A stretch of 64,000 bases of DNA from an uncultured Bacteroidia bacterium (GTDB taxonomy: Bacteria; Bacteroidota; Bacteroidia; Bacteroidales; UBA932): assembly GCA_902788095.1 (NCBI GenBank), contig CADAIT010000013.1:1-64000 (forward strand), in the 5' to 3' direction. Below are positions 9,807 through 47,502 of the stretch, piece by piece. Each line of letters begins with the position of its first letter. Position 1 is the first letter of the stretch. The translations under genes were made by a program, and so were the position numbers. Below the pieces are notes generated by a model. It saw only the letters and a program-made list of their open reading frames with translations. It searched no databases and had not been told where the DNA came from.

Positions 9807-11729
9807 TTATTTATGCTTAGGTTTTCGTGCTGCAATATTAGGACTTTGTTTTGAACTCTGCAAGGGCTTTTGCGATTTTTTCGCAGAATTTCTGAAGAAA
9901 AACGATTTTTGCCGCTGTTTTTTCTCCGGGTCGCGCTCGGTAAACACCGGCGTCATGTCACGCGGGTCCAGTCCCGTATAATACATCACGGACGAAGTGG
10001 TCATGGGCGTGGGCGTAAAATCCTGCACCTGATCCATCCAGATTCCCTTCAAGGCCGGATGCGAAGCCAGGTGTTCCATGTCTTTCATGGTACATCCCGG
10101 GTGCGAAGAGATGAAATAGGGCACCAGCCCCACGTGCGTGCCGGCTTCGCGGTTCACTTTGTCGAATTCCCTGCGCAAACGCTCGAACAGGCGGAAGCTG
10201 GGTTTGGCCATTTTCTGCAGGACATGGTCTTCGGTATGCTCCGGTGCCACTTTCAGTCGGCCGGACGTATGGTCCAGCACCAGCGTCTGCAGGTAGGATT
10301 GGGAACTGCTGTCCACGAAACCGTCCTCCGTAAGGAAAAGGTCGTAGCGAATACCGCTGCCGATATAGCTGTGGCGGATGCCCTTGGTGCCGTCGATACG
10401 CTTGTACAGCTCCATCAGACGGGTATGGTCGCAGTTCAAATTGGGGCAGCGCTTGGGGAACAGGCAGCTGCGTCGCTTGCATTTGTCGCACAGTTCCAGG
10501 TTCTTCCCCTGCATTCCGTACATATTGGCCGTGGGAGCGCCCACATCGGAGATATTGCCCGCAAAATCCGGCAGCTTATTCAGTTCCTTCACCTCCTTGA
10601 GAATGGATTTTTCGCTCCGGGACGAGATGAATTTTCCCTGGTGGGCGGCGATGGTGCAGAAGTTGCAGCCGCCGAAGCACCCGCGGTGGGTGTTCACGGA
10701 GAATTTAATCATGTCGTAGGCCGGGATGCGCTTGCCTTTGTATCGCGGATGCGGCAGCTTGGTGAAAGGCAGGTCCCAGAAGGAGTCCATTTCCTCGGTG
10801 GTGGCCGGCGGATAAGGCGGATTGATTTGCACGTACCCCTTCCCTACCGGCTCCAGGATGGTGTCCGGGTGCATCATGTTGGCATGGGTCTCTATCCAGT
10901 GGAAATTCTCCGCAAACGCCCGCTTGTCTTTGCAGCACTCCTCGAAAGAATGGAGCACAAGCTTTCCGGAGGAGGTATCTGTTCCGGAATCGTCGCTGCG
11001 CGACCCCTCCCATTCGCCGCGCGAAAATCGCGGCTCTGGGCCCCTCCCTCTTACACGGCCGAGGGTGGCCATGGATTCCGGAACAGATACCCCCTCCGGA
11101 AGCTTTCCACTTACGTAGAAGGCAATCTGGGGAATCTGCTGCATGCGGTGGCGGGGCCAGCCCTTCTCGATGCCCTTCGTAAGCTCCAGCATGGGGCGCT
11201 CGCCCATGCCATAGCAGAGATAATCGGCCCCGGAAGTATATAGGACGGAGGGCAGCAGGCAGTCTTTCCAGTAGTCGTAATGCGTGAGGCGGCGGAGCGA
11301 AGCCTCTATGCCGCCGATAATCACCGGAATATCCGGATAGAGTTTCTTGAGGATCTGGGTGTACACCGTGACGGCGTAATCCGGACGGGCGCCGGCCTTG
11401 CCTTCCGGCGTATAGGCATCGTCGTGACGCAGGCGTTTGGAGGCGGTATAGTGGTTCACCATGGAATCCATGGCGCCTGCATTGAGGCCGAAATAGAGCC
11501 TGGGGGCGCCCAGCTTGCGGAAATCACGCAAGTCGTCCCGCCAGTTGGGCTGCGGAATCACGGCCACCCGGTAGCCCCATTTCTGGAGCCAGCGTGCAAT
11601 GACCGCCGTCCCGAACGAAGGATGGTCGATGAAGGCGTCGCCGCTCAGCAGGATGATGTCGATATAGTCCCAGCCCAGCGCCTGCACCTCCTTCACGGAA
11701 GTGGGAAACATGTAGTCGTTATTCGACAT
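9807..11729 (-). CDS. YgiQ-family radical SAM protein with an in-frame repeat insertion
   Basis: 640 aa, UPF0313/YgiQ type. It has the N-terminal B12-binding-like Rossmann region, the radical SAM motif CxxxCxxC in RGCFGGCNFCTIAAHQGKF, and the extra C-terminal region. Its substrate is unknown. The start lies inside the upstream rlmI-like gene (11-bp overlap). Residues about 209-257 are odd: a 49-residue Gly/Arg/Ser-rich segment absent from the usual YgiQ layout. It is encoded exactly by the 147-nt palindromic repeat at 10959-11105, which keeps the frame and introduces no stop. The surrounding protein looks intact, so the insertion is probably tolerated as a surface loop. Confidence 0.9.
   Translation of the reverse strand: MSNNDYMFPTSVKEVQALGWDYIDIILLSGDAFIDHPSFGTAVIARWLQKWGYRVAVIPQPNWRDDLRDFRKLGAPRLYFGLNAGAMDSMVNHYTASKRLRHDDAYTPEGKAGARPDYAVTVYTQILKKLYPDIPVIIGGIEASLRRLTHYDYWKDCLLPSVLYTSGADYLCYGMGERPMLELTKGIEKGWPRHRMQQIPQIAFYVSGKLPEGVSVPESMATLGRVRGRGPEPRFSRGEWEGSRSDDSGTDTSSGKLVLHSFEECCKDKRAFAENFHWIETHANMMHPDTILEPVGKGYVQINPPYPPATTEEMDSFWDLPFTKLPHPRYKGKRIPAYDMIKFSVNTHRGCFGGCNFCTIAAHQGKFISSRSEKSILKEVKELNKLPDFAGNISDVGAPTANMYGMQGKNLELCDKCKRRSCLFPKRCPNLNCDHTRLMELYKRIDGTKGIRHSYIGSGIRYDLFLTEDGFVDSSSQSYLQTLVLDHTSGRLKVAPEHTEDHVLQKMAKPSFRLFERLRREFDKVNREAGTHVGLVPYFISSHPGCTMKDMEHLASHPALKGIWMDQVQDFTPTPMTTSSVMYYTGLDPRDMTPVFTERDPEKKQRQKSFFFRNSAKKSQKPLQSSKQSPNIAARKPKHK
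10959..11105. repeat. Cloverleaf-like palindromic repeat, copy 1 (inside the YgiQ-type gene)
   Basis: Outer arms 10959-10991 and 11074-11105 are an inverted repeat; the inner 18 bp (10974-10991 / 11074-11091) are perfect, and the outer part has one indel and one mismatch. The core is 10992-11073. It contains hairpin GTCGC-TGC-GCGAC (10992-11004), hairpin GCCGCG/CGCGGC (11016-11034) and a GGCC-CCCTC/GAGGG-GGCC hairpin in the conserved block 11038-11073. That 36-nt block is identical, in reverse complement, to 47419-47454. The 12 nt at 11001-11012 match 47467-47478. Confidence 0.9.
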
Positions 11730-12918
11730 ACAGCAGCAGCCCTTTCAGGTATTCTCCTTCCGGATGATAGATGTTTACGGAATGGTCGGCAGGCTGGTTC
11801 AGACGGTCCAGGATGCGCACACTGCGGCCGGACTCCGCGGCTGCGGAGAACACGGCCAGGGCGAAGGCTTCCTTGTCCACCACCTGCGAGCAGCTGAACG
11901 TGAACACGAAACCGCCCGGCGCCACCTTGGCGATGGCGGCCGCATTCAGGCGCTGATAGGCCCGGAGCGCATTTTTAAGCGCCCCGCGGTGCTTGGCGAA
12001 TGCCGGCGGGTCCACGATGACAAGGTCATACGCCCCGTCCGGAACCTTCTTTATGAAGTCGATGGCGTCGGCACAATAGGAAGTGTGCCGATCGGGCGTG
12101 AAGCCGTTGAGCGCCACGTTGCGGTCCACCATGTCCATGGCCCGCTGCGAGCTGTCCACGGAATCCACGTGCGCAGCGCCGCCGGCAAGGGCATAGACGG
12201 AGAAACCGCCCGTATAGCAGAAAAGGTTGAGGACGTGACGGCCTTCCGCCAGACGGCCTACGGCGGCGCGGTTCTCCCGCTGATCCAGGAAGAAGCCGGT
12301 CTTCTGGCCTTCCTGCCAGTTCACGAGGAATTTATTGCCGTTTTCAAGGACCACGAGTTCGTCTTTGGAGGTGACAAAACCATCGGCCTTATACAGATAG
12401 CCGTCCACCAGCTCCAGGCCGGCCTTGAACGGCGCCGTGCCGGAACTTTTGTCGTAAACGGCCTTCAGGCGCTCCCCATATACGGTTTTGAGCGCTTCGC
12501 AGATGGCCGTCTTGGCCCTGAACATGCCCACCGAATGGGCCTGGAGCACGCAAACGCCGTCGTAATAGTCTATTATCAAGCCCGGGAGTCCGTCCCCTTC
12601 CCCGTGTACCAGGCGATAGCAATTGGTCCGGGCACTCTGCGTCAGGCCGAAAGCGTCCCGGAGCTGAAAAGCCCGCAGCAGCATCCGCTCCCAGAAATCC
12701 GGCAGCGTAGGGTCTTCGTCAAAGCTCAGGATGCGCACGGCGATGGAACCAATCTGGTAATGCCCGCAGGCCAGCAGTTTGCCGTCTGCGGCGCAAACGC
12801 TCACCAGGTCTCCCTCTGCAGGATGTCCCACAATCTGGCCGATGGCACCGGAGAACACCCAGGGATGAAAACGCAAGAGGGATTCCTCCCGGCGGGGTTT
12901 GAGGATTACTTTATCCAT
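11719..12918 (-). CDS. rlmI: RlmI-like 23S rRNA (cytosine-C5) methyltransferase
   Basis: 399 aa, class I SAM-dependent methyltransferase of the RlmI/YccW family. An N-terminal PUA domain (VILKPRREESLLRFHPWVFSGAI) precedes a central EEHEE-like domain and a C-terminal Rossmann domain. The SAM loop is NLFCYTGGFSVYALAGGA, the acidic residues are in VDSVDSS, and the catalytic-type motifs are DLVIVDPPAFAK and FTFSCSQVV. RlmI methylates C1962 of 23S rRNA in E. coli; the same target is inferred here. It overlaps the genes on both sides by 8-11 bp on the same strand, implying an operon. Confidence 0.85.
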   Translation of the reverse strand: MDKVILKPRREESLLRFHPWVFSGAIGQIVGHPAEGDLVSVCAADGKLLACGHYQIGSIAVRILSFDEDPTLPDFWERMLLRAFQLRDAFGLTQSARTNCYRLVHGEGDGLPGLIIDYYDGVCVLQAHSVGMFRAKTAICEALKTVYGERLKAVYDKSSGTAPFKAGLELVDGYLYKADGFVTSKDELVVLENGNKFLVNWQEGQKTGFFLDQRENRAAVGRLAEGRHVLNLFCYTGGFSVYALAGGAAHVDSVDSSQRAMDMVDRNVALNGFTPDRHTSYCADAIDFIKKVPDGAYDLVIVDPPAFAKHRGALKNALRAYQRLNAAAIAKVAPGGFVFTFSCSQVVDKEAFALAVFSAAAESGRSVRILDRLNQPADHSVNIYHPEGEYLKGLLLYVE

Positions 12919-13546
12919 GGTCTTGATATCTTTCAGGGTACAGTTGCTCAGGCGTAAGGGGATGCTTCCGGGAACGCATCAGCTTCAGGTACATCTCCCG
13001 GCAGACCCAGGCGTCCGTAGCGGCGTAACGCTGCTGCGATTCGCTCAGCTGGACCGCTTCCCAGTTGGACAGCTGCTGCGCCTTGGAAATTTTCACGCCC
13101 AGAATGATGGCGGTCATTTTCTTCACGCTTTTGTCCCGGATGCCATATTCCCATACGATGTTCTGCAGGTCCACGAAACCCTTGGGGGAAAACTTAGTGA
13201 TTTTCTGCAGGCCCCGGACATCGTCCAGCGTAGCCGCTCCCACCTTAACGATGGACGGATTGGCCAGAATGGAAGCCAGCGGACGCGGCAGGCCCAAGGT
13301 CTTCAGGCGGAACAGGTAAGCTTTTCCGCCGCCGGAAAGCTGCAGCAGCGCCGTTCCGTTGGCCTGCTGCTCGGGAGAAAAAGTCGGACGGGTTTCCGTG
13401 TCGAAGCCCAGCACCTGCTGCCGCTTCAGGTATCGCAGCGCACGGTGAAAAGCGTCACCCTCCGCGTCAATGACCTCGATGGTTCCGGGGAAAGACGCCA
13501 GTTCCAGCGCCCCGATTTCTTCTGGGCTAACGGAAATTTTGTACAT
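12911..13546 (-). CDS. DEDDy 3'-5' exonuclease domain protein (RNase D/WRN-like)
   Basis: 211 aa, a single exonuclease domain. The DEDD metal-binding residues are visible as LGFDTETRP (Asp and Glu), VGAATLDDVRGL (Asp) and QRYAATDAWVCREMY (Tyr-x3-Asp, DEDDy type). There is no HRDC domain, so it is shorter than RNase D and resembles the stand-alone WRN-type exonucleases found in Bacteroidetes. It acts on RNA or DNA 3' ends, and the substrate cannot be told. It overlaps its upstream and downstream neighbours by 20 bp and 8 bp. Confidence 0.85.
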   Translation of the reverse strand: MYKISVSPEEIGALELASFPGTIEVIDAEGDAFHRALRYLKRQQVLGFDTETRPTFSPEQQANGTALLQLSGGGKAYLFRLKTLGLPRPLASILANPSIVKVGAATLDDVRGLQKITKFSPKGFVDLQNIVWEYGIRDKSVKKMTAIILGVKISKAQQLSNWEAVQLSESQQRYAATDAWVCREMYLKLMRSRKHPLTPEQLYPERYQDHG

Positions 13547-14645
13547 AGGTATCTTGAACGTAGGATGCGGCCACTTCTACCAGGACCGGATATCCCAGTT
13601 CGGACTCTTCGGTTTCGAAATAATGCAGGGAGGGACGTGCTATCCGGTGCGTAAACAGGCGCTGCGAGCGCAGCAGTCCATACGTGGCGGAAATCAACAC
13701 CTGCTGCGGTTCCAGGAAGCGGAAGTTCCCGGACAGCATGTTATCGAAGGCACTGTCTTCCTCTGTCCCCTCCCGACGGATAAGCGCCAGCTCCGACTCC
13801 AGATAGGCAAGGTCGAAGGCGTAATTGTCCACAATCAGCACGTCCATCTTCCGGCCGGAGGTCTGGTACTGACGCAGCAGATTCCGGAATTCCGTCCGGA
13901 TATCCAGCGCCTGTTCCGGAGTAATGACGCTCAGACGGGCATCGGCCCACGCTTTCCTGGCGAAAACGGATTGCCAGGCCCCGCTCCTGCGGGTGGCGCG
14001 GTCCGTCCATACGGCGATGTCACGGGCACCGGAAGCGTACGCCTGCTCCAGCAGTATATCTACCGGCGAGAGCAGGATGCCTTTCCCGCCACAAAGCTTC
14101 AGCAGCGCATCCACGTCCCGATAACCGAACTCCGCCTGCATGGACGAAGCGAAAATCACTATTTTGGAACGCATCTTGGGCAGCAGCGCGTCGGGGGTGG
14201 CCGTGGAACGGACACAGGTGCTGTCCCAGGCAAAAATGGCATTGCGCACAGCTGCCTCCCGCAGACTGTCCGTCCTTTCCGGTACATCGTTCCCTTCCAC
14301 GATAAAGTGTCCGTAAGGTTCGTTGAAGGCATCCAGGATGACGTCGAAACGCTCTCCCGCGAAATCCGGCAGCGAATCCCGCAGGGCACGTCCGTCAATG
14401 TTGTCTACGGCATCGATGGTCTGGAAACGGCGTGCCAGCGGAAGAACGTCCTTTGACTCGCCGACAATGGCAATGGAGCCGTCCGGGCCGAATTTGCCGG
14501 CCTGTGCTACCAGCCCGCCTGTTCCCGTGGAGTCCGATGCGATGGATAGGACCAGCGGAAGTTCGGACTCGGATACCTCCGTACCCCGCTTGCAGGATGC
14601 GAATAAAGCCAAAGCGGTGATTCCCAGTATGACGATTCTTCTCAT
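13527..14645 (-). CDS. Lipoprotein of unknown function
   Basis: 372 aa. The N-terminus MRRIVILGITALALFASCK has a signal peptide and lipobox with Cys18, so it is a lipoprotein. The rest alternates beta and alpha segments (IVIFASSMQAEFGYRDV, DVLIVDNYAFDL, QQVLISATYGLL), resembling a periplasmic-binding-like two-domain fold. I do not recognise the family. A -7 box (TATTTTTG) lies 10 nt upstream of the start, so it heads the run of four overlapping minus-strand genes down to the YgiQ-type gene. Confidence 0.75.
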   Translation of the reverse strand: MRRIVILGITALALFASCKRGTEVSESELPLVLSIASDSTGTGGLVAQAGKFGPDGSIAIVGESKDVLPLARRFQTIDAVDNIDGRALRDSLPDFAGERFDVILDAFNEPYGHFIVEGNDVPERTDSLREAAVRNAIFAWDSTCVRSTATPDALLPKMRSKIVIFASSMQAEFGYRDVDALLKLCGGKGILLSPVDILLEQAYASGARDIAVWTDRATRRSGAWQSVFARKAWADARLSVITPEQALDIRTEFRNLLRQYQTSGRKMDVLIVDNYAFDLAYLESELALIRREGTEEDSAFDNMLSGNFRFLEPQQVLISATYGLLRSQRLFTHRIARPSLHYFETEESELGYPVLVEVAASYVQDTYVQNFR

Positions 14646-14695
14646 AGTGCTTGCTCAAAAATACGAAAGCTGAATGCAAAAGTACACAATTCCTG

Positions 14696-15325
14696 CTACT
14701 TTTCCAATCCCAGTACTTCCTTGATTTTGGGAATCAGAAGGGAATTGAGGTATTCCGGCTCCATGAAATGGCCGCCGTCGTATTCCATGTAGGTGCTTTT
14801 GCCAAAATATTTTTCCCAGAGGTCCGTACGTACCACGCCGGAAGCCTTGTAGTGGTCCTGCTTTCCAAAAAAAGCGTAATAGAAGCCCGTCGGCTCGATA
14901 CTGGCGAAGGCCGCCTCCGCGTGCGCCTTGTATTTGCGCAGGATTTCGGGCGTGAATTTCAGTTTCTGTCGGTCGCCTTCCTTGACGGGAAAACGAAGGT
15001 GCAAGTACCATCGGCCCAAGGCGAAACGGGCGATGCGCGCCGCCTTGCACAACCACGCGGGCGCACCCAGCGAGGGCGACACAAACAAATGCGGAATTCC
15101 CTGAATACGAAGCGCTTGAATAGCGCCCAGCGATTCGCCGATAAGCAGCTGCGGCTTCAGTTCTTCCACCCAGGAAGCAATTTGCCTGCTGCCCAGTTCC
15201 GGGTCGAAGTCGTATGTGCGCACAACTACCTTTACCTTGCGCTCGTCCATGTGGATGCGCAGATGATTGGGGATGCGGCTGTCCCCGCCGCCTCCCATGC
15301 CGTGGATATAGAGAATGGTTTTCAC
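14696..15325 (-). CDS. YqiA-like alpha/beta hydrolase (esterase), GTG start
   Basis: 209 aa. An N-terminal KTILYIHGMGGGG strand and oxyanion loop is followed by GESLGA (G-x-S-x-G nucleophile elbow) and a C-terminal GGHFM (likely catalytic His). This is the small UPF0227/YqiA-like esterase layout. The start is GTG at 15325, as no in-frame ATG fits. A TAATTTTG -7 box ends 5 nt upstream, so the mRNA may be leaderless. No signal peptide is seen. The substrate is unknown. Confidence 0.75.
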   Translation of the reverse strand: MKTILYIHGMGGGGDSRIPNHLRIHMDERKVKVVVRTYDFDPELGSRQIASWVEELKPQLLIGESLGAIQALRIQGIPHLFVSPSLGAPAWLCKAARIARFALGRWYLHLRFPVKEGDRQKLKFTPEILRKYKAHAEAAFASIEPTGFYYAFFGKQDHYKASGVVRTDLWEKYFGKSTYMEYDGGHFMEPEYLNSLLIPKIKEVLGLEK

Positions 15326-15330
15326 GGTTG

Positions 15331-15358
15331 CAAAATTAATATTTAATCTTTACTTTTG
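15331..15358. promoter_or_regulatory. Face-to-face -7 boxes for the esterase (-) and C1B peptidase (+)
   Basis: Minus TAATTTTG (15331-15338) and plus TACTTTTG (15351-15358) are separated by 12 bp. A plus-strand TTG at 15328-15330 lies 20 nt before the plus box as a possible -33 element. Confidence 0.7.
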
Positions 15359-15381
15359 TGAGAATTTATAAAAGATTCGGC

Positions 15382-16581
15382 ATGAAAAAAATCATCATTT
15401 CCGCAGCCTTCGCTGTTCTGGTCGCCCTCAGTGCCGGCGCCCAGCGTCCTGCCAGCCCTGTACAACCGGCGGACTACCAGTTCACCACCGTCAAGGAAAA
15501 TCCCATTACTCCCATCAAGAACCAATACCGCAGCGGAACCTGCTGGTGTTTCAGCGCATTATCCTTCCTGGAGTCGGAAGTCATCAAGGCCAAGGGCATC
15601 AAAGACCCGGCCCTGTACCCGGATTTCTCCGAAATGTTCATTGTGCGCAAGGCCTATGCAGAACGCGCCCAAAAGTTCGTGCGCCTCAACGGCAAACTCA
15701 ATTTTGCCGCCGGCTCGGATTTTGGCGACGTACTGGATGTAGCCAAGAAATACGGCCTGATGGACCAGAAGGCTTACTCCGGCCTGCAGTACGGCTATGA
15801 CCTCCCCGTGCAGGGCGAGCTGGACGCCGTTCTCAAAGGCTATGTGGATGCCGTGATAAAAAACCCCAACCGCAAACTCACCGCTGTCTGGGCCAAAGGC
15901 ATGGAAGGCATTCTGGATGCTTACATGGGCGAAATTCCCGGGCAGTTCACAGTGAACGGTGCGACATACACCCCGGAAAGCTATCGTGACGCCCAGGGCC
16001 TGAACCTGGACGACTATATCGGCTTCACCTCCTTCACGCACCATCCGTTCTACACCTCCTTCGCCATCGAGGTGGAAGACAACTGGCGCTGGACCCCGTC
16101 CTGGAATGTTCCGCTGGATGAATTCATGGCCATCATCGACCAGGCCATCAACGACGGTTACACCGTAGCCTGGGGCGGCGACGTCTCCGAAGCCGGTTTC
16201 ACGCGCAACGGACTGGCCATTCTTGTGGACACGGAAGTCAAAGCAAGCAGCGGCTCGGACCAGGAGCGCTGGGTGGGCAAGGCCGAGGAAAAACCTGCCG
16301 AAAAGGTGGCCGTGAAAGAAATTGAGGTGAACCAGGAGAACCGCCAGCTGTGGTTCGACGAGAAAACCTCCACGGACGACCACGGCATGCACCTCTACGG
16401 CATCGCCAAGGACCAGAACGGCACCAAGTACTACCTCATCAAGAACTCCTGGGGAGAAAGCGGAGAGTACAAGGGTATCTGGTACATGAGCGAGCAGTTC
16501 TGCAAGGGTAAAACCCTGAACATCGTCGTGAACAAGAAAGCCGTTCCCAAGGAAATCCTCAAAAAACTGGGGCTTAAATAA
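15382..16581 (+). CDS. Secreted C1B cysteine peptidase (bleomycin hydrolase/PepC-like)
   Basis: 399 aa with a signal peptide (MKKIIISAAFAVLVALSAGA), which favours the ATG at 15382. The papain-like catalytic Cys is C54 in SGTCWCFSA, with His in DDHGMHLYG and Asn in LIKNSWG. The layout matches bleomycin-hydrolase-type aminopeptidases, which are normally cytoplasmic. Secreted versions are common in Bacteroidetes, where they probably degrade peptides in the periplasm or outside the cell. Its stop overlaps the pssA start (TAATG), so translation is probably coupled. Confidence 0.9.
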   Translation: MKKIIISAAFAVLVALSAGAQRPASPVQPADYQFTTVKENPITPIKNQYRSGTCWCFSALSFLESEVIKAKGIKDPALYPDFSEMFIVRKAYAERAQKFVRLNGKLNFAAGSDFGDVLDVAKKYGLMDQKAYSGLQYGYDLPVQGELDAVLKGYVDAVIKNPNRKLTAVWAKGMEGILDAYMGEIPGQFTVNGATYTPESYRDAQGLNLDDYIGFTSFTHHPFYTSFAIEVEDNWRWTPSWNVPLDEFMAIIDQAINDGYTVAWGGDVSEAGFTRNGLAILVDTEVKASSGSDQERWVGKAEEKPAEKVAVKEIEVNQENRQLWFDEKTSTDDHGMHLYGIAKDQNGTKYYLIKNSWGESGEYKGIWYMSEQFCKGKTLNIVVNKKAVPKEILKKLGLK

Positions 16582-17297: not shown

Positions 17298-17715
17298 GGC
17301 CGAACCTGGCAGCTACATCGTCCGGGATGTCATTGAAATCAATGGCATCCCAGATTTGTTCTATCTCCCGGCGGTCCTTTTTGGTGGGACGTCCGGCGCC
17401 GCGGTCCCGCGAAAGGAAGAAACTTTCCACAGGTGCACGGAGTTTGTCCAGCTCGACCTGCGGTGTGAGATTCTCGGCAAAATTGGGAACCAATTTGGCC
17501 CCCACGCGATGTTCGGTGGGCTGCACGACCTTGTAAACGAAGGTTATGGCACCCTTGCGGACATGCAGGATGTCACCGGCCTGCACCAGTTTGGAGGGCT
17601 TGGCATTCACCTGCCCCGTCTTCACCCTACCGCCTTTGCAGGCATCGGCCGCCTCGCTGCGCGTCTTGAACGCCCGGATGGCCCACAGGTATTTATCGAT
17701 ACGGACGTCTGCCAT
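17269..17715 (-). CDS. S4-domain RNA-binding protein (Hsp15-like)
   Basis: 148 aa. The N-terminal S4 domain (RIDKYLWAIRAFKTRSEAADACKGGRVKTGQ) is typical of Hsp15/HslR, which binds 50S subunits carrying stalled nascent chains. The C-terminus is basic (RDRGAGRPTKKDRR). Its ATG overlaps the manA stop (TAATG on the minus strand), so it is probably translated from the manA mRNA. Confidence 0.88.
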   Translation of the reverse strand: MADVRIDKYLWAIRAFKTRSEAADACKGGRVKTGQVNAKPSKLVQAGDILHVRKGAITFVYKVVQPTEHRVGAKLVPNFAENLTPQVELDKLRAPVESFFLSRDRGAGRPTKKDRREIEQIWDAIDFNDIPDDVAARFGLTDEDLESL

Positions 17716-18647: not shown

Positions 18648-18671
18648 AATTCTTGTCTTCTGTCAATCGTG

Positions 18672-18711
18672 CAAAAATACGTAAAATTCCGTACTATTTT
18701 TCTTATCTTTG
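18672..18711. promoter_or_regulatory. Divergent -7 boxes for manA (-) and the 18734 gene (+)
   Basis: Minus TATTTTTG (18672-18679) and plus TATCTTTG (18704-18711) face each other across 24 bp, twice the usual spacing of the other divergent pairs here. Confidence 0.55.
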
Positions 18712-24097: not shown

Positions 24098-24440
24098 GAA
24101 AGTTGGCAGGGCCGTAAGCCGCTTTCTGTTTTTGAATCTGTCATTTATCTTCGCAACCTACCCCCCGGCATCAGGCGGGCCGCCCTCAACTGCCGGTATA
24201 TTTGGTCTTGCAGGCCCGGGCAACGTACCCGCTGCAAGTCGCCTTGCAACGTCGTGGGCTCTTACCCCGCGTTTTCACCCTTACCGGAGAAAAAAAAACA
24301 AAAACACCGGCGGTAATTTTCTGTTACGCTGCTTAAAGATTACTCCCTACTGTGCTTTCCACAGCCGGGTGCCCTTTCCTGTGCGGACTTTCCTCAGGGC
24401 CGAAACCCCGCGACAGATCGTCCTGCCAATATTACATTGG
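24098..24440 (-). ncRNA. rnpB: RNase P RNA
   Basis: The minus strand carries the conserved RNase P blocks in order: GAGGAAAGTCCGCAC (CR I), then GGGTGAAAACGCGGGGTAAGAGCCCAC across the P10-P12 region (read in two parts, GGGTGAAAACGCGG and GGTAAGAGCCCAC), then ACAGAAAGCGGCTTACGGCC near the 3' end. P1 is formed by TTGGCAGG (complement of 24422-24429) pairing with CCTGCCAA (complement of 24103-24110), a perfect 8-bp helix. It is the catalytic RNA for tRNA 5' maturation. The ends given are approximate. A terminator follows directly. The plus-strand open frame across this region is spurious. Confidence 0.95.
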
Positions 24441-40139: not shown

Positions 40140-40140
40140 C

Positions 40141-40815
40141 ATGAAAAAATTCTTTTTCCTCCTGGCCCTGCTGCCGACCTTCTGCCTGGCGCAGCCCCGG
40201 CAGTTAAGCGTGAAGGAATTCCTTAAACTACAAGCTTCGGATACCACCAGCTACCTGGTGCAAGGCGTCGTAGCCAAGGTCCGCAGCACCTCCAGCGGCA
40301 GTTTTTACCTGGAGGACCGCACCGGAACCCTGCTGGTGTACGGCCTACAGGACCCGGCCCGCCCCGGCAAAAATTTCAGTCAGATGGACATCGTCAAAGG
40401 AGATACCCTCACCGTTCTGGGCCGGTTCACCATATATGGCGGCACCACCCTGGAAATGAAAGACGGACGCCTGATCAGAAAGGCCGACGGTCCGGACCAC
40501 AATCTCTCCTTCTACGACCGCCTGGAACGCAAGCCGTCCTTCAAGGGAAAGGTGGGTCAGGAAGGCCTGGAAGCCTTCAAGACCTGGGTGCAACAAAAAC
40601 TGAAACCCGCCTCTGACGGCGCTACGGGAACGGTGAAAGTCCGCTTTGTAGTAGGCCGAAACGGTGGCGTACAGGAAGTGCAGGCCGTGAAAGGCGGCAC
40701 CCCGGCCATGCGCGCCGAAGCAGTCCGAACCATACAAAGCGCGCCCAAATGGAAACCGGCCATCTCCGACGGCTCCCCCGTCCGCATGCCTTACACCATC
40801 GAAGTCCACTTCTGA
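40141..40815 (+). CDS. Periplasmic OB-fold / TonB C-terminal domain fusion protein
   Basis: 224 aa. After the signal peptide (MKKFFFLLALLPTFCLA), residues about 25-110 resemble the OB-fold found in Bacteroidetes exported proteins (SYLVQGVVAKVRSTSSGSFY, DRTGTLLVYG). Residues about 140-224 are a TonB C-terminal-like domain (VKVRFVVGRNGGVQEVQAVKG, PKWKPAISDGSPVRMPYTIEV). There is no N-terminal anchor helix, so it would be soluble in the periplasm and could not act as a normal energised TonB. Its role is unknown. It is last in the DPP4 operon. Confidence 0.75.
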   Translation: MKKFFFLLALLPTFCLAQPRQLSVKEFLKLQASDTTSYLVQGVVAKVRSTSSGSFYLEDRTGTLLVYGLQDPARPGKNFSQMDIVKGDTLTVLGRFTIYGGTTLEMKDGRLIRKADGPDHNLSFYDRLERKPSFKGKVGQEGLEAFKTWVQQKLKPASDGATGTVKVRFVVGRNGGVQEVQAVKGGTPAMRAEAVRTIQSAPKWKPAISDGSPVRMPYTIEVHF

Positions 40816-40825
40816 TGCAAAAAAA

Positions 40826-40857
40826 TTTGGGGAATCAGAAATTATTCCTTATCTTTG
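40826..40857 (+). promoter_or_regulatory. Promoter of tRNA-Val
   Basis: TTTG (40826-40829), 20 nt, TATCTTTG (40850-40857); the tRNA begins 10 nt after the box. Confidence 0.8.
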
Positions 40858-40867
40858 CAATCCTTTT

Positions 40868-40942
40868 GAGGGCATAGCTCAGTTGGTTTAGAGCGCTTGC
40901 TTGACAGGCAAGAGGTCCGCAGTTCAAATCTGCGTGTCCTCA
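40868..40942 (+). tRNA. tRNA-Val (GAC)
   Basis: 75 nt. Acceptor GAGGGCA pairs with TGTCCTC (one G-U). The D arm is GCTC/GAGC, the anticodon arm CTTGC-TTGACAG-GCAAG gives anticodon GAC, and the T arm is CGCAG-TTCAAAT-CTGCG. The discriminator is A. CCA is not encoded. Confidence 0.97.
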
Positions 40943-40952
40943 CAAAAGTAAA

Positions 40953-40976
40953 AGGTCGCATCGGCGGCCTTTTTTT
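40953..40976 (+). terminator. Terminator of tRNA-Val
   Basis: AGGTCGC-ATCG-GCGGCCT hairpin (40953-40970, one G-U) followed by a run of T. Its end overlaps the stop of the convergent hrpB gene by 2 bp. Confidence 0.85.
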
Positions 40977-43455
40977 ATGAGGACTTCTTACCCCTGACGC
41001 CGCGGATGGGGGTGGCGGCGAGGGGGTCTTCCGGCCAGGCGTGCTTGGGATATCGGCGGCGCAGTTCTTTCCGCACTTCAAAGTAGGTTCCGTTCCAAAA
41101 ACTCCGCAGGTCCGAGGTGAGCTGCACGGGCTTATAGCCCGGAGACAGGAGTTCCATCAGGACCGGCGCGCCGTCCACCTGGGGTGTATCCAGCAGCCCG
41201 AAACATTCCTGCAGCCGCACGCGCAGAATCGGGGCTTCCGCGCCCTGGCGGTACTCAAGGCGGATATGGCTCCCTGTGGGGACGGTGATGTGGGTGGGCG
41301 CCAGCCGGTCCACCGCCTGCTGCTGACTATAGGAAAGCCTGCTCCGGATGACCTCGCAGAGATTGAGCCGTTTTAGTTCGGCGGCCGTCGTCGCCTTCCC
41401 GATAAAGAGCGGTCCCCATTCGCGGGCATCGGCACAAAGTGTGTCCATATCCACAGCAGGCAGCTCCAGTTCGGGATGACGGAGTGCGACAAAGGCAATG
41501 CGCTGCTGCAGGTTCCCCACCTCATCGTCAAAGGAGAGCAGGGAGGCGCCGTTTCGGACAATGGCATCACAAATGACTCCTTGCACCTTCTCCCGGACAT
41601 CACCGGACAGCGGTTTCGAAGAAAGAAGGATGGCGCCGATACGCCGCTCCCGCCGGGCCACAACCATTCCGCCCTTGGCGTCCCAGGAAACATTGTCCCG
41701 TTCCTGCGCGAAGGCCGCAAGGTCCTCCGGAGACAGGGGGCTGGCCAGAAACACCGTCCCGACTCCGCCGGAACGCGGGTGCATGGACGCAGCCACCAGC
41801 CATTCGGCCCCGGCAAGCGGATCGGCAGCATTTACGGCCACCAGTTCTCCGCCGGAGAGCTGGAACACCCCGACACCGTCCTTCCAGGCCTTTCCTATCC
41901 GCTCCGGATACGCCTGTGCAAGCAGCCGACCGGCATCGTAGGGATTGACCGGAGCGTCGTCCACAGGGGCTTGAACCAGGTCCGCGTACTGACGTGCCAT
42001 GCGCGCCATGCGGCTCCACTGCCGGGAGTTCCGTCCGCGACGGAGGGCATCTACACGACGGTCAACAGCCGCATCCTCATCCCCTGCCAACGGGTCCTTC
42101 TCCTCCAGCAGCGCCGCCAGGTCGGCCGCAAGGGCCTTTTCCGGGCCAGAACAGGCCGACAGAAGCATGGCCGCCATACGCGGATGGCATGGAAGTTTGG
42201 ACAAAGCTTTCCCCCGGGCGGTCACCCCGCCGGTTCCATCGATAGCCCCAAGGGACAGCAGCAGTTCCCTTGCATGGAGAAGCGCCGGACGCGGCGGCGG
42301 GGTAAGCCACGAAAGGCACTCCACCTCCCGCTCCCCCCAGACGGCGCTGTCCAGCACCAGCGGCGCCAAATCGGCCTCCAGGATTTCCGGCGTGCGTATC
42401 TTAGCCATGCGGGCCTCCGTTCCGGCGTTCCACAGACGGTAACAGATTCCCGGCGCAACGCGTCCCGCCCGCCCCGTCCGTTGGGTGGCCATATCGAGGG
42501 AAATCCGCACGGTTTCCAGGTGGGACAGGCCGCTCCGCGGGTCGAAGACCATCTTCCGGTACAGGCCGCTGTCCACCACCACACGCACGCCCTCGATGGT
42601 GAGGGAGGTCTCGGCGATGGGCGTTGCCAGGACCACCTTCCGCTCTCCGGGCCGGCTGGGCGCAATGGCCCGCGCCTGTTCGTCATTGGAAAGGAGGCCA
42701 TAAAGCGGATAAACAGCCGTCTCCCCGAGGGCGCCGGAAAGCAGTTCTGCCGCCTTCCGTATCTCCCCTTCCCCCGGCAGAAACGCCAGGATGTCGCCCG
42801 TATGCGCACGGTGCGCCTGAAGGACGGTCCTCGCCACAAGGGCGGCACAGCCAAAGGCATCGGCCTCCTCCTTCGCATGCACAATCTCCACGGGATACAT
42901 CTTTCCCTCACCCTCCACCACAGGGGCGTCCAGGGCCAACGACAGGGCCGATGTGTCGATGGTGGCAGACATGATGACCATACGAAGGTCCTCCCTCAGC
43001 AGGGAGCGGCACTGCCGCGTCAGGGCAAGGGCCTCGTCGGAAACGAGGCTCCGCTCGTGAAACTCGTCGAAGATAACCGTTCCCACCCCCTCCAACGCAG
43101 GGTCGTCCAGCAGCATCCGCGTTAGAATGCCCTCCGTAACAACCTCTATGCGGGTTTTCCGGGAAACGCGGCTCTCCAGGCGGATGCGGTAACCCACCGT
43201 CTCCCCAACCTGTTCTCCGAGGAGCCAGGCCATACGGGAGGCCACCTGACGGGCCGCCACACGCCGGGGTTCCAGCAGGATGACCTTCCCTTCCGGAAAC
43301 GCATCCATAATGGTGAGTGGAAGAACCGTGGACTTGCCGGCACCCGGAGTTGCCGTTACGATAACGCTCCCCTTCTCCGCCAGGACACGGTTAACCTCCT
43401 CCGCAATTCCATAGGCCGGGAGAAAGGCGATATCCGTATGACGCAAAATGGCCAA
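40975..43455 (-). CDS. hrpB: ATP-dependent RNA helicase HrpB (DEAH family), TTG start
   Basis: 826 aa. Walker A is TPGAGKST, motif II is DEFH in IFDEFHERSLV, with SAT (MSATIDTSAL) and the C-terminal QRxGRxGR-type motif (TQRTGRAGRVAPG). The HrpB-specific C-terminal region follows. The frame begins with TTG at 43455. The first in-frame ATG comes only after the Walker A motif, so TTG (or an unseen alternative) must be used. Its role in bacteria is not well defined. It sits 7 bp after the M20 peptidase stop on the same strand. Confidence 0.9.
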   Translation of the reverse strand: MAILRHTDIAFLPAYGIAEEVNRVLAEKGSVIVTATPGAGKSTVLPLTIMDAFPEGKVILLEPRRVAARQVASRMAWLLGEQVGETVGYRIRLESRVSRKTRIEVVTEGILTRMLLDDPALEGVGTVIFDEFHERSLVSDEALALTRQCRSLLREDLRMVIMSATIDTSALSLALDAPVVEGEGKMYPVEIVHAKEEADAFGCAALVARTVLQAHRAHTGDILAFLPGEGEIRKAAELLSGALGETAVYPLYGLLSNDEQARAIAPSRPGERKVVLATPIAETSLTIEGVRVVVDSGLYRKMVFDPRSGLSHLETVRISLDMATQRTGRAGRVAPGICYRLWNAGTEARMAKIRTPEILEADLAPLVLDSAVWGEREVECLSWLTPPPRPALLHARELLLSLGAIDGTGGVTARGKALSKLPCHPRMAAMLLSACSGPEKALAADLAALLEEKDPLAGDEDAAVDRRVDALRRGRNSRQWSRMARMARQYADLVQAPVDDAPVNPYDAGRLLAQAYPERIGKAWKDGVGVFQLSGGELVAVNAADPLAGAEWLVAASMHPRSGGVGTVFLASPLSPEDLAAFAQERDNVSWDAKGGMVVARRERRIGAILLSSKPLSGDVREKVQGVICDAIVRNGASLLSFDDEVGNLQQRIAFVALRHPELELPAVDMDTLCADAREWGPLFIGKATTAAELKRLNLCEVIRSRLSYSQQQAVDRLAPTHITVPTGSHIRLEYRQGAEAPILRVRLQECFGLLDTPQVDGAPVLMELLSPGYKPVQLTSDLRSFWNGTYFEVRKELRRRYPKHAWPEDPLAATPIRGVRGKKSS

Positions 43456-43462
43456 TAGACCA

Positions 43463-44824
43463 CTAAAAATACTTGTAGAACAGCGCCAGGGACCGCATGC
43501 CGGCCCAAAGCTGCCGAAGCAGGTAGCTTTCGTTCGGGGAATGGATGGTATCCCGCTCCAGTCCGAATCCCATCAGGAGCGGGTCCGTTCCAAGGATGGT
43601 CTGCATGTCCGCCAGAACAGCGATGGAACCGCCTCCCCGGGAGGGCACCGGCTCGATTCCGTACACCTCCGCCATGGCACGTGACGCAGCCTTGTAAGCC
43701 GGTGACGTAATGGGAATGAGGAATCCGTTTCCACCCTCGAAGGGAGTTACATCCACCTTCACGCCCTTGGGAGCGATGGACTTGAAATGCTTCTCGAAAA
43801 GCGCCGTAATCTCACTGGAACGCTGATTGGGAACCAGTCGCATGGAAATCTTGGCATGGGCCGTGGAAGGAAGGACTGTCTTGGCGCCCGTCCCGGTATA
43901 GCCGCCCCAGATACCGCAGACATCCAGGCAGGGACGGATGCCCGTACGCTCCATGGTGGTATATCCTTCCTCCCCGCGAACCTCGTCAATATCCAGGAAC
44001 GCCTTATATTCCTCAAGGTCGAACGGAGCCCGGGAGAGCATGGCCCGGTCCTCGGCCGATAGTTCCACCACTTTGTCGTAGAAGCCCGGGATGGCGACCC
44101 GGCCGCTTGCATCATGCAAGGAGGCAATCATCTCACACAGGACATTGATGGGATTCGCGACGGCACCCCCGTAGTGACCGGAATGCAGGTCTTTATTGGG
44201 ACCCGTCACCTTGACCTCCAGGTAAGCAAGGCCTCTCATCCCGCAATTGATGGAGGGAACCTTGTCCGAAATCATCGTCGTATCCGAAACCAGGATGACG
44301 TCGGCGCGGAGCATTTCCTTGTGGGCCTCCACCCATGCCGGGAGGGACGGACTGCCGATCTCCTCCTCGCCCTCGAAGATGAATTTCACGTTATGATGAA
44401 GGAGTCCCGCCCGCAGCTCGTGCTCAAAAGCTTTCAAGTGCATGAACAGCTGTCCCTTGTCGTCATTGGCCCCGCGTGCGTAAATGGCCTCCTCTCCCGT
44501 GGCGGGATCGTTGGCAATAACCGGGTCGAAAGGGTCTGTACGCCACTTCTCCAGCGGTTCCGGCGGCTGCACGTCATAGTGTCCGTAAACCAGAATCGTC
44601 TTGGGTGCGCCGATATCCTTAGATGCGAAGACCACGGGATGACCGGCCGTATCGTAAACGGCGGCTTTATCTACGCCCGCCTCCTCCAGCAGTTCTACAA
44701 GGCGCTCGGCGCAGCGGCGCATGTCGGCCTTGTGCTCAGGCTTGGCGCTGATGGACGGAATCCTGAGCAGCGAAAAAAGTTCCTCATAAAAACGTTCCTT
44801 GTTCTCCTGGATGTACTGTTGCAT
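43463..44824 (-). CDS. M20 family metallopeptidase (dipeptidase)
   Basis: 453 aa from the ATG at 44824. The zinc-site residues are seen in VYGHYDVQPP (His), ARGANDDKGQ (bridging Asp), FEGEEEIGS (Glu pair) and a C-terminal His region. The dimerisation lid domain lies between. It is a cytoplasmic di/tripeptidase of the CNDP/PepV-like type. A TATATTTG -7 box lies at 44852-44859. hrpB follows downstream and is probably co-transcribed. Confidence 0.9.
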   Translation of the reverse strand: MQQYIQENKERFYEELFSLLRIPSISAKPEHKADMRRCAERLVELLEEAGVDKAAVYDTAGHPVVFASKDIGAPKTILVYGHYDVQPPEPLEKWRTDPFDPVIANDPATGEEAIYARGANDDKGQLFMHLKAFEHELRAGLLHHNVKFIFEGEEEIGSPSLPAWVEAHKEMLRADVILVSDTTMISDKVPSINCGMRGLAYLEVKVTGPNKDLHSGHYGGAVANPINVLCEMIASLHDASGRVAIPGFYDKVVELSAEDRAMLSRAPFDLEEYKAFLDIDEVRGEEGYTTMERTGIRPCLDVCGIWGGYTGTGAKTVLPSTAHAKISMRLVPNQRSSEITALFEKHFKSIAPKGVKVDVTPFEGGNGFLIPITSPAYKAASRAMAEVYGIEPVPSRGGGSIAVLADMQTILGTDPLLMGFGLERDTIHSPNESYLLRQLWAGMRSLALFYKYF

Positions 44825-44851
44825 ACGGTGTTCTTTTAAGTGGTTATTGTA

Positions 44852-44859
44852 CAAATATA
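44852..44859 (-). promoter_or_regulatory. -7 box of the M20 peptidase gene
   Basis: Minus-strand TATATTTG, 27 nt before the ATG. Confidence 0.5.
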
Positions 44860-44888
44860 GCCATAATCGATTACCTTCGCAACAATCG

Positions 44889-45026
44889 CTTGCCGCGATT
44901 GCAGAAAATCGGCACTACACGGCACTCCAGCTGCAAACGCGGCTGGGATTTGGGCCGAAAGCATTGTTTTCCTTGCCGCGATTGCAGAAAATCGGCATTA
45001 CACGGCACTCCAGCTGCAAACGCGGC
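44889..45026. repeat. Palindromic doublet (two 55-nt units)
   Basis: 44889-44943 and 44972-45026 are 54/55 identical, in the same orientation, 83 nt apart. Each unit is itself an imperfect palindrome with arms GCCGCGATTGCAG and CTGCAAACGCGGC (one mismatched position). It lies in the gap 44860-45103, which has no gene. Confidence 0.85.
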
Positions 45027-45033
45027 AGCGGGA

Positions 45034-45056
45034 ACGGGACCCGAAACAGGTCCCGT
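45034..45056 (-). terminator. Hairpin downstream of the 45104 lipoprotein gene
   Basis: ACGGGACC-CGAAACA-GGTCCCGT forms an 8-bp stem but has no long T-run, so terminator function is uncertain. Confidence 0.45.
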
Positions 45057-45103
45057 CAGATATAATAAGTGCTGGCAATCAGAATATTCCGCACCAGGAG
45101 AGC

Positions 45104-45487
45104 CTACTCCATATTAAACGCATACTTGCGGAGGGGCTCCTTGACTTGGTCCTCTTGTTTCAGGGCGCTGGTGGAGATGACTTTCTGCAGAATCAGGGAA
45201 TAGCTGGCCGTAACCGTGTCCTTCACTTCCTCATAGAACGCATCGGCAGCACTGCCCGCTTTTTCCATGGTGGCGGCACGGTTGTACAGGAACGAATACG
45301 CCGACGACCCCGCACCACTGTATGCGGCCTGGTCCATGAGTTTGGCCATGTCCACGGCGGCCAGGCTGTCTTTCTCCTCGGCAAAGTCGCTCACTTCCGT
45401 GTGCAGATACACCCAGTTGTTCACGGTCTTGGAACAGGAGCCCAACAGAAAAACGGCAGTCAAAGCCAGCAGAACGTACTTTTTCAT
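45104..45487 (-). CDS. Small lipoprotein of unknown function
   Basis: 127 aa from the ATG at 45487. Signal peptide with lipobox LLGSC (Cys18). The mature part is mostly alpha-helical (SLAAVDMAKLMDQAAY, NRAATMEKAGSAADAFYEEV). I do not recognise the family. It follows clpX after 1 bp, so it is the last gene of the tig-clpP-clpX run. Confidence 0.75.
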   Translation of the reverse strand: MKKYVLLALTAVFLLGSCSKTVNNWVYLHTEVSDFAEEKDSLAAVDMAKLMDQAAYSGAGSSAYSFLYNRAATMEKAGSAADAFYEEVKDTVTASYSLILQKVISTSALKQEDQVKEPLRKYAFNME

Positions 45488-45488
45488 C

Positions 45489-46715
45489 CTATTTCTCCAG
45501 TTTGGCCTTGGCGTAGTCCAAGGTGAGGGTAAAGCTTTTTTTAGAGGACGACGGTGCCTCGAACATGGCATCGGCCATCACTTTCTCGCAAATGCTGCGA
45601 AGGCCGCGGGCGCCCAGTTTGTTCTTCAGGGCCGTATCTACGATGAGGTCCATCACGGCCGGCTCGATTTCCAGTTTGATGCCGTCCAGCTCGAACATTT
45701 TCTCATACTGGCGCAGGAGGGCATTCCGCGGTTCCGTAAGTATCCGCTTCAACGAATCCCGGTCCAGCTGGTCCAGGTAGGTGATGACCGGCAGACGGCC
45801 CACGATTTCCGGAATAAGTCCATAGGCCCTGAGGTCCATGGCATCCACGTATTCCAGCAGGTTATCTTTGTCGATACGCTGTTTCTCTTCCGCGCCGAAG
45901 CCGATAATCTGCGTATTCTTCCGCAGGGCGATGTGCCGCTCGATACCCTCGAACGCACCGCCGCAGATAAAGAGAATGTTCTGCGTATTCACATGGACGA
46001 ACTCCTGCTCCGGATGTTTGCGGCCACCCTTGGGCGGCACGTTTACGATGCTGCCTTCCAGCAGCTTGAGCATGGCTTGCTGCACCCCCTCACCGGAGAC
46101 GTCACGTGTAATGGAAGGATTGTCGCTCTTGCGGGCGATTTTGTCAATCTCGTCGATGAACACAATGCCCCGCTCCGCCTTTGCCTGGTCAAAATCGGCC
46201 TCCTGCAGCAGGCGTGTGAGAATGCTCTCCACGTCCTCGCCTACGTAACCGGCTTCCGTGAGCACCGTAGCATCCACGATGGTAAAGGGCACATCCAGCA
46301 TTTTGGCGATGGTGCGGGCCAGCAAGGTTTTGCCTGTTCCGGTGGGGCCTACCAGCAGGATATTGCTCTTCTCCAGCTCGACACCGTCATCGGCCTTCTC
46401 TATCAGGTTGTGCTGCACACGCTTATAGTGATTGTACACGGCCACAGCCAACACTTTTTTGGCGCGGTCCTGCCCAATCACATACTGGTCCAGGTAATCC
46501 TTGATTTCCTGCGGCTTGGGCGCTTTCCCCAGCTTGGGAACCGCTCCGGAGGCCTTTTTCTTCCCTCCTTCCAGCTCCTCTACATACTGGGCCGCCAGTT
46601 TTGCGCAGTCCGAGCAGATGTAACCGTCCATCCCCTGCAGAAGGAAAGGGACCTCTGCATCTGAACGGCCGCAAAACAGGCAGCGGCTACCGCGCGACGA
46701 TACTTTTTTAGCCAT
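45489..46715 (-). CDS. clpX: ATP-dependent Clp protease ATPase subunit ClpX
   Basis: 408 aa, normal length. The zinc finger has C12, C15, C34 and C37. Walker A is GPTGTGKTL, Walker B is [10 protein letters not shown], and the pore loop is GYVGED. A C-terminal small AAA+ domain is present. ClpX unfolds tagged proteins and feeds them to ClpP. Its ATG overlaps the clpP stop by 1 bp (TAATG), so the two are coupled. Confidence 0.97.
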
Positions 46716-47389
46716 TAGCGGGCTCTTTTACGAAGAATTTCATCCACCATGCCGTACTGAAGGGCTTCCTCCGCGCTCATCCAATAGTCACGTTCGCCAT
46801 CCAGGGCCACCTTCTCGTAAGGCTGTCCGCTGTGCTGGGCAATGATATTGAAGAGTTCCGTACGGGTTTTCTCGATTTCCTTGGCGGCGATGAGGATTTC
46901 CGTTGCCTGGCCCTGCGCTCCGCCGAGCGGCTGATGAATGAGCACGCGGGAGTGCGGAAGCGCGCTTCGCTTGCCCTTTTCACCGGCGCACAGCAGCACG
47001 GCACCCATACTGGCGGCCATACCCGTGCAAACGGTGGCCACGTCCGGCTGTACCAGCTGCATGGTGTCATAAATGCCGAGGCCGGAAGTCACCTGTCCAC
47101 CGGGCGTGTTCAAGTACATGGTAATGTCGGCATGGGAATCGTTGGAGGCCAGGAACAGCAGCTGAGCCTGGATAATATTGGCCACGTCATCGTCGATGGG
47201 AACGCCCAGGAAGATGATACGGTCCATCATCAGGCGGCTGAACACGTCCATCTGAGCCACGTTGAGCTTGCGCTCCTCGGTAATGGTGGGGTTGATGTAT
47301 CCGTCATAAACGGAGGTATAACGAGAGAGGGTCATCGACGATAACCCTCTCCCCTTCACTGCAAATTTTTCAAAATCTGTCATAATCAT
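46715..47389 (-). CDS. clpP: ATP-dependent Clp protease proteolytic subunit ClpP
   Basis: 224 aa. The catalytic triad is S127 (GMAASMGA), H152 (VLIHQPLGG) and D201 (ERDYWM). The N-terminal 35 residues are longer than the mature enzyme and may be a processed propeptide. It forms the barrel protease with ClpX. The gap to tig (125 nt) holds copy 2 of the cloverleaf-like repeat and no -7 box that I can see, so transcription probably comes from tig. Confidence 0.97.
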
Positions 47390-47405
47390 TAACGAAAGAA
47401 ATATG

Positions 47406-47502
47406 TTGTTTGAAAACCCATGGCCACCCTCGGCCGTGTAAGAGGGAGGGGCCCGCCGTGAAACGGTGGGAGGGGTCGGCGGAGCCGACGGTTTTCAAAC
47501 AA
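47406..47502. repeat. Cloverleaf-like palindromic repeat, copy 2 (tig-clpP gap)
   Basis: Outer arms TTGTTTGAAAACC (47406-47418) and GGTTTTCAAACAA (47490-47502) are a perfect 13-bp inverted repeat. The core is 47419-47489. It has the 36-nt block (47419-47454) shared with copy 1, hairpin CCGT-GAA-ACGG (47456-47466), the 12-nt block (47467-47478), and hairpin GTCGGC-GGA-GCCGAC (47475-47489). The arms abut the core exactly, as in copy 1, but have unrelated sequence. Confidence 0.9.

What the first reader, a model, noticed from the sequence alone, without database searches (positions are those of the whole stretch)
10959..47502. Cloverleaf-like repeat family whose stems covary between copies
Two copies (10959-11105 and 47406-47502) share a 36-nt identical block and a 12-nt identical block. 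Around these, each copy folds as an outer stem plus three hairpins. One hairpin is built from shared sequence (GGCC-CCCTC / GAGGG-GGCC). The other two keep pairing while changing sequence (CCGT/ACGG against GCCGCG/CGCGGC, and GTCGGC/GCCGAC against GTCGC/GCGAC). The outer stem also differs completely (13 bp against about 32 bp) yet abuts the core at the same positions. Compensatory change with fixed sequence blocks is what a selected DNA or RNA structure looks like. I know of no named family matching it.
Basis: partly seen in the sequence, partly recalled or inferred. Interest (0 to 1): 0.9.

Follow-up and report, generated by a model that had tools for sequence, protein, structure and literature searches.

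The report
Flipping pseudoknotted cloverleaf repeat family
Bacteroidales of one large genus known from metagenome assemblies carry scattered copies, many inside genes without breaking the reading frame, of a short DNA repeat that can fold into a knotted cloverleaf; each copy sits in its own stem and its core is found turned around at the same place in relatives, so it offers a natural system to test how such repeats move and keep their shape.

Summary
The own genome has 17 copies. A covariance model finds the element in 99 of 121 genomes of the genus but in 1 of 117 genomes of other genera of the order. Rfam has nothing. The outer stem, mostly 13-35 bp, differs between loci, yet at orthologous loci 61 of 83 changed positions are compensated. 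At 9 of 21 orthologous sites the core occurs in both orientations between similar arms. Eleven of 17 own-genome copies lie in open frames of at least 312 codons, including ygiQ (window copy 1); copy 2 lies between tig and clpP. Arms are not in general copied from the target. Best reading: a non-autonomous, probably mobile palindromic element acting as a folded single strand, whose stem is homogenised and whose core is flipped in place, as template switching does. Mobility, the agent of flipping and the mobilising enzyme are inferred.

The parts
10959..11106 (-). Copy 1, whole element (outer stem plus core), in-frame inside ygiQ
   Evidence: (model hit 10974-11091)
11074..11106 (-). Copy 1, 5' arm of outer stem P1 (element strand)
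10959..10991 (-). Copy 1, 3' arm of outer stem P1
11054..11073 (-). Copy 1, hairpin P2 (CATGGCC / GGCCGTG) with loop A-CCCTC
11046..11065 (-). Copy 1, pseudoknot: CCCTC 11061-11065 with GAGGG 11046-11050
11009..11040 (-). Copy 1, hairpin 2 (P3: CCC / GGG plus variable stem)
10992..11004 (-). Copy 1, hairpin 3 (P4: GTCGC / GCGAC)
9807..11729 (-). Host gene of copy 1: YgiQ-type radical SAM protein, 640 aa, open through the insertion
47406..47502 (+). Copy 2, whole element, between tig and clpP
   Evidence: (model hit 47401-47507)
47406..47418 (+). Copy 2, 5' arm of outer stem P1
47490..47502 (+). Copy 2, 3' arm of outer stem P1
47419..47438 (+). Copy 2, hairpin P2
47427..47446 (+). Copy 2, pseudoknot: CCCTC 47427-47431 with GAGGG 47442-47446
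47452..47470 (+). Copy 2, hairpin 2 (P3)
47475..47489 (+). Copy 2, hairpin 3 (P4: GTCGGC / GCCGAC)

Best explanation
This is a family of dispersed, non-autonomous, probably mobile palindromic elements of about 100-150 nt, nearly confined to one genus. Its active form is probably one folded strand (ssDNA or RNA): a long outer stem closing three hairpins, the first with its loop tied downstream as a pseudoknot. Copies have landed between genes and in-frame inside genes. Once in place, the stem behaves as a hairpin in DNA: replication template switching copies one arm onto the other (arms stay complementary while drifting) and turns the core around between the arms, and slippage deletes the core. 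Shown: copy number, covariation of stem, P2 and pseudoknot, filled and core-less sites, copies in open frames, both orientations at one site, remnants of deletion, no general likeness of arms to target. Inferred: that presence/absence reflects movement, that template switching is the agent, that the selected strand form serves mobilisation, and that an enzyme acts in trans (a Y1/HUH transposase is only a candidate).
For: Copies: 17 in own genome; 99 of 121 genus genomes, at most 30 candidates scored per genome; 1 of 117 other-genus genomes. Structure: on 19 copies picked for a standard hairpin 3, 148 cells with changes on both sides against 41.0 in shuffles, covariation score 0.516 against 0.146, at most 0.103 when slid. 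P2 plus pseudoknot on 38 copies: 45 such cells against 13.9. Pseudoknot: six fully paired variants in 89 of 90 copies (104 rows, 7 unparsed, 7 dropped as repeated arms; the parse required CCC and GGG). Wobble in P1 of 215 copies, 5191 cells: G.T 98, A.C 27, other mismatches 71. Frames: 11 of 17 copies in open frames of at least 312 codons, with Pfam families in 9 of the 10 scanned, plus ygiQ. ygiQ without insert in 10 of 23 loci examined. Flips: both orientations at 9 of 21 orthologous sites; at L284/L429 the cores are identical and both flanks align inverted; at L198/L482 the cores are identical but only one flank aligns. Compensation, most different pair per site: 61 compensated, 22 not, of 83 changed of 520 positions. 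Deletion remnants, by eye, at the L294, L291, L293, L289, L009 and L012 sites. Sites L284 and L296 lack both arms in two relatives each.
Against: No recent insertion was caught between close strains; all comparisons are between species, so some core-less sites may be losses. No transposase is linked: none of 19 Y1 loci from 6 genomes holds a copy. Within genomes, copies whose 5' 36 core nt are at least 97% alike have arms only 55-70% alike, which simple copying plus slow drift explains poorly. At six orthologous G000/G005 sites that 36-nt stretch is 99.5% conserved against 86.5% for flanks, which plain neutral decay does not explain. Of 14 inverted ortholog pairs only 2 have identical cores and 12 are 46-90% alike, while 14 of 24 same-orientation pairs are at least 94% alike (pairs overlap), so pure flipping is not the whole story. 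In the larger set the outer three pairs of P2 are not Watson-Crick or G.T in 50, 59 and 91 of 211 copies, partly through bulges and register shifts. In copies outside the 90, L160 reads CCCAT/ACGGG and L035 has an altered loop, by eye.
Confidence: 0.55

Rival explanations
1. A structured RNA with a cellular function (regulator, terminator, stabiliser of mRNA 3' ends) that happens to be repeated.
For: Pseudoknot and P2 covariation and the G.T excess; the first 36 core nt more conserved than flanks at six orthologous sites; many copies of G118 and G121 lie next to gene ends (seen in the sequences, not counted).
Against: Copies lie inside coding genes, and the same site holds either orientation, so no fixed transcript strand; 11 of 17 own-genome copies are inside open frames; presence at a given site is patchy.
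Confidence: 0.15
2. An invertible switch (inverton) flipped by a site-specific recombinase, giving phase variation.
For: Both orientations at 9 of 21 sites. That Bacteroidales are rich in invertons is recalled; one search gave listings and abstract starts on invertons only.
Against: The arms differ between loci, so no obvious common recombinase site in them; hosts include ygiQ, TruB, DAP epimerase and MurB genes; a recombinase does not explain compensated arms or P2/pseudoknot covariation.
Confidence: 0.12
3. A REP/REPIN-type element moved by a RAYT (Y1) transposase.
For: Y1 family found in 46 of 61 genus genomes, 43 over the cut-off; element and Y1 co-occur: 44 both, 2 Y1 only, 6 element only, 9 neither, Fisher p 1.3e-5, not corrected for kinship or completeness; RVT_1 is in only 20 of 61 genomes and is not found in G000, G005, G061, G080 or G034.
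Against: None of 19 Y1 loci, some cut by contig ends, carries the element; the three of G000 have other repeats nearby; the element is longer and more complex than a REP; 6 genomes have the element without a Y1 match.
Confidence: 0.3
4. Arms are inverted copies of the insertion target, made anew at each insertion.
For: Arms differ between loci even when cores are near-identical; at L005 and L290 the outermost 12 and 7 nt match an inverted copy of flanking sequence seen in a relative; arms are slightly more like own than swapped flanks in all four comparisons (means 5.85-6.19 against 5.74-5.83, not tested).
Against: The excess is small (score 8 or more: 24 of 248 own, 73 of 980 swapped); both arms are absent from relatives at L296 and L284; arms share a weak common sequence. 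L005 can also be read as a deletion at GAGG.
Confidence: 0.08

Closest known systems
REP / REPIN elements with RAYT transposases
   Same: Dispersed palindromes, single-strand hairpins, many per genome, sometimes in-frame inside genes (passages of PMC3733652 and PMC6006769).
   Different: REPs are described as 20-40 bp (PMC3733652 abstract start) with a GTAG or CGTC tag; here 100-150 nt, a pseudoknotted cloverleaf, a locus-specific outer stem, and no Y1 gene found beside a copy.
CGTC-tagged repeats and Rickettsia palindromic elements (RPE)
   Same: CGTC repeats reported in Bacteroidetes among five phyla, apparently without a dedicated transposase, some inside genes, with varied stems; truB is a host gene in Rickettsia (RPE-1) as here (PMC3733652 passages; own truB copy).
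   Different: They are short tagged hairpins; no cloverleaf, pseudoknot or flipped core is described in the passages read.
Bacterial MITEs
   Same: Short, non-autonomous, inverted ends, many copies (recalled).
   Different: MITEs keep family-wide terminal repeats recognised by a transposase (recalled); here the inverted ends differ between loci.
Inverted repeats homogenised and flipped by template switching
   Same: Arm homogenisation and spacer inversion (PMC8604942, PMC8794818; passages).
   Different: In PMC8604942 the inverted spacers change 2-5 bases; here a conserved structured core of about 60-140 nt in a repeat family.
Intragenic invertons of Bacteroidales
   Same: Inversion between inverted repeats, some inside genes (recalled).
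   Different: No shared recombinase site seen in the arms; the core is a repeated structured unit.

Membership tests
REP/REPIN (RAYT-associated) | RAYT gene flanked by the same repeat in the genome | tested here: not met
   No model hit at E up to 5 in 19 Y1 loci, 87 kb, from 6 genomes
REP/REPIN (RAYT-associated) | Short single hairpin with GTAG tag | tested here: not met
   Consensus and fold are a cloverleaf; no GTAG in the consensus
CGTC-tagged REP / RPE | CGTC tag at the end of one short hairpin | tested here: not met
   A CGTC string occurs at the P4 foot, but GTC lies within the stem and the element is multi-hairpin
MITE | Family-wide terminal inverted repeats | tested here: not met
   Arms of copies with near-identical 5' cores are 55-70% alike, background 41%; a weak common sequence remains
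MITE | Target-site duplication | tested here: inconclusive
   No consistent duplication seen by eye; no insertion between close strains
Rfam structured RNA families | Score at or above a family threshold | tested here: not met
   Only RNase P and two tRNAs in the window; six matches at E up to 10 in four loci, all far below thresholds
Site-specific inverton | Shared recombinase site and mixed orientation in one strain | not testable with these tools
   No read data; arms share only a weak common sequence
Phage-borne element | Present in viral contigs | tested here: not met
   0 matches of one exact pattern in IMG/VR

The most novel reading that the evidence does not exclude
The core is a selfish single-strand cassette that overwrites older copies in place: a free ssDNA or RNA copy of the core replaces the core of a resident hairpin in either orientation, keeping the resident's private stem. 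This would explain near-identical cores with private stems, cores more conserved than flanks, and inverted cores that usually also differ inside. It would be a kind of concerted evolution that I do not know for REPs.
Probability: 0.18. Interest if true: 0.85.

Novelty: new variant of a known kind. Interest (0 to 1): 0.62.

Why it matters
It gives hundreds of natural instances (220 distinct copies with flanks alone) in which one structured core sits in different private stems, and in both orientations at the same site. That helps to separate two causes of covariation that are hard to tell apart: selection on a folded strand and DNA-level template switching. It also adds a large, unnamed repeat family, often inside conserved genes, in a lineage seen in many ruminant-gut assemblies (titles), with an open question about what moves it.

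Tried and rejected
Not supported as a general rule: arms copied from the target. RVT_1 as a required mobiliser looks unlikely: not found in five genomes that hold 11-17 copies, though some assemblies are incomplete. Y1 linkage not found. A dyad inside each arm was suspected; the statistic is weak (35.2% and 33.5% at the two best centres, others 18-33%), so it is not claimed. Viral contigs gave nothing. The G118/G121 flank search gave no relative with usable empty sites (only 2 candidates scored per genome). In one search two of 20 pairs were misregistered (clpP, L007) and one search replaces it. The P4 part is misregistered and not used. Hairpin 2 could not be scored by column (gapped; 74.6% of cells paired), so its pairing rests on reading the copies. 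The six sites leave out clpP, whose G005 copy is cut by a contig end. Alignment A2 holds 19 and A1 38 of the 44 copies printed. Paper searches that found no description of this family in the held library.
Full report
Check. Copy 1 lies in-frame inside a 640-aa YgiQ-type radical SAM gene; copy 2 lies between tig and clpP. Folding of the element strand beats all 200 shuffles as RNA and as DNA.

Family. A 66-nt query found 15 matches in the own genome, one of them the other arm of copy 1. A simple DNA query found the element in 20 of 61 genomes, all 20 in the genus. A covariance model from 19 copies finds 17 copies in the own genome, 11-17 in each of five relatives, copies in 99 of 121 genus genomes (at most 30 candidates scored per genome, so counts are minima), and in 1 of 117 genomes of other genera in the order. 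That one (L262) has a stem, P2, pseudoknot and P3 by eye but no P4. An exact pattern hit 119 stretches in named genomes before the scan stopped; the 80 titles listed are all Bacteroidales or Bacteroidia. One exact pattern in viral contigs: 0. Rfam: nothing near a threshold.

Structure. The outer stem P1 and hairpin P2 covary strongly: on 19 copies, picked for a standard hairpin 3, there are 148 cells with changes on both sides against 41.0 in shuffles, and the covariation score is 0.516 against 0.146 (at most 0.103 with the partner slid). P1 copies were picked by a stem finder, so the share of paired cells is biased upward, but not the variety of pairs. RNA energies give P2 in both window copies; DNA energies give a CC-CCCTC/GAGGG-GG helix. 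The pseudoknot occurs as CCCTC/GAGGG 75, CCCGT/ACGGG 6, CCCAC/GTGGG 3, CCCCC/GGGGG 2, CCCAT/ATGGG 2 and CCCGC/GCGGG 1, with one broken, in 90 copies (104 rows, 7 unparsed, 7 dropped for repeated arms; the three constant pairs were required by the parse). Among the unparsed, L160 reads CCCAT/ACGGG and L035 has an altered loop, by eye. In 211 copies P2's outer three pairs are not Watson-Crick or G.T in 50, 59 and 91, the third being often G.T (78); the fourth and fifth are Watson-Crick in 205 and 211; the two inner ones were partly fixed by the parse. In P1 of 215 copies G.T pairs outnumber A.C pairs 98 to 27 on the element strand, with 71 other mismatches in 5191 cells (copies are not independent). 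DNA homogenisation alone should make G.T and A.C equal, so the element strand itself seems to be read as a folded strand (inference).

Private stems and arms. Thirteen own-genome copies have stems of 13-32 bp with 0-2 mismatches, all different. In 15 of 20 G118/G121 copies the stem has no mismatch, and copies with near-identical cores have different arms (only L264 and L266 share theirs). Within four genomes, pairs whose first 36 core nt are at least 97% alike have arms 55-70% alike (background 41%); at six orthologous G000/G005 sites arms are 95.8%, that core stretch 99.5% and flanks 86.5% alike. Arms share a weak common sequence, so they seem to belong to the element. They resemble their own flanks only slightly more than swapped ones (62 copies; score 8 or more in 24 of 248 against 73 of 980 comparisons), and two sites (L284, L296) lack both arms in two relatives each. 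At L005 and L290 the outermost 12 and 7 nt look like an inverted copy of the flank; L005 can also be a deletion.

What happens in place. Among 220 distinct copies with flanks, 21 orthologous sites (52 copies) have arms at least 75% alike; 9 show both orientations of the core. At L284/L429 the cores are identical and both flanks align inverted, so the core itself turned round; at L198/L482 the cores are identical but only one flank aligns. The other 12 of 14 inverted pairs differ inside the core (46-90% alike), whereas 14 of 24 same-orientation pairs are at least 94% alike (pairs overlap). Taking the most different pair per site, 83 of 520 arm positions changed, 61 compensated and 22 not. Arm remnants without a full core are seen at L009 (G061), L012 (G005), L289 (G092), L291 (G003), L293 (G092) and L294 (G087); at L294, L291 and L012 short direct repeats such as CACCCTC bound the gap (by eye). 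Arm homogenisation plus spacer inversion is what template switching between inverted repeats is reported to do (passages, PMC8604942 and PMC8794818).

Genes. Eleven of 17 own-genome copies lie in open frames of at least 312 codons: ygiQ, and by Pfam TruB, DAP epimerase, a UPF0004/radical SAM protein, Methyltransf_4, GT2, MurB, an ABC transporter, an M20 peptidase and an ATP_bind_3 protein; one has no family, so its frame may be chance. In ygiQ 10 of 23 loci examined have no insert, and others carry copies with other arms and either orientation.

Mobilisation. A Y1 transposase is found in 46 of 61 genomes and co-occurs with the element (44/2/6/9, Fisher p 1.3e-5, uncorrected), but none of 19 Y1 loci in six genomes carries it, and the three in G000 have other repeats. 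A reverse-transcriptase family is present in 20 of 61 and not found in G000, G005, G061, G080 or G034. So the enzyme is unknown.

Against my reading. Nothing here shows a fresh insertion. The core's first part is conserved beyond its flanks, and arms of like-cored copies differ more than simple copying and drift would suggest. A core-overwriting process, or a function at each locus, remains possible; I state the former as the most novel case. Families considered are in the membership table. I found no paper on this family in six searches of the held library, which misses most subscription journals.

Noticed in passing
window 24099-24429 (-): Bacterial RNase P class A RNA; two tRNAs at 40868-40942 and 62152-62225.
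   Followed up: no
L110, L116, L119, L129, L130, L144: Several orthologous sites without the element in relatives hold another short repeat of the type CTTCGCTC..AATGACA (such as TCTCGACTTCGCTCGAAATGACA), as if the same places accept different repeats; L129 has it beside a copy.
   Followed up: no
L157, L162, L204: Long form of the element with about 55 extra nt between hairpin P2 and the 3' strand of the pseudoknot.
   Followed up: no
L219, L220, L221: The three Y1 matches of the own genome each have different palindromic or inverted repeats nearby.
   Followed up: partly
L052, L053, L054: At the same ygiQ position three relatives carry other inserts (for example CCCCCTG...CAGGGG stretches), so this loop looks like an insertion hot spot.
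   Followed up: no
L378: A second inverted repeat (GACATTCTCC / GGAGAATGTC) lies outside the arms, as if the palindrome had grown into the flanks.
   Followed up: no
L162 left flank: Two copies of a CTCGTCCTCAAAAACGGCCCAATTTCAGGACGAGAG-type unit lie next to the element.
   Followed up: no
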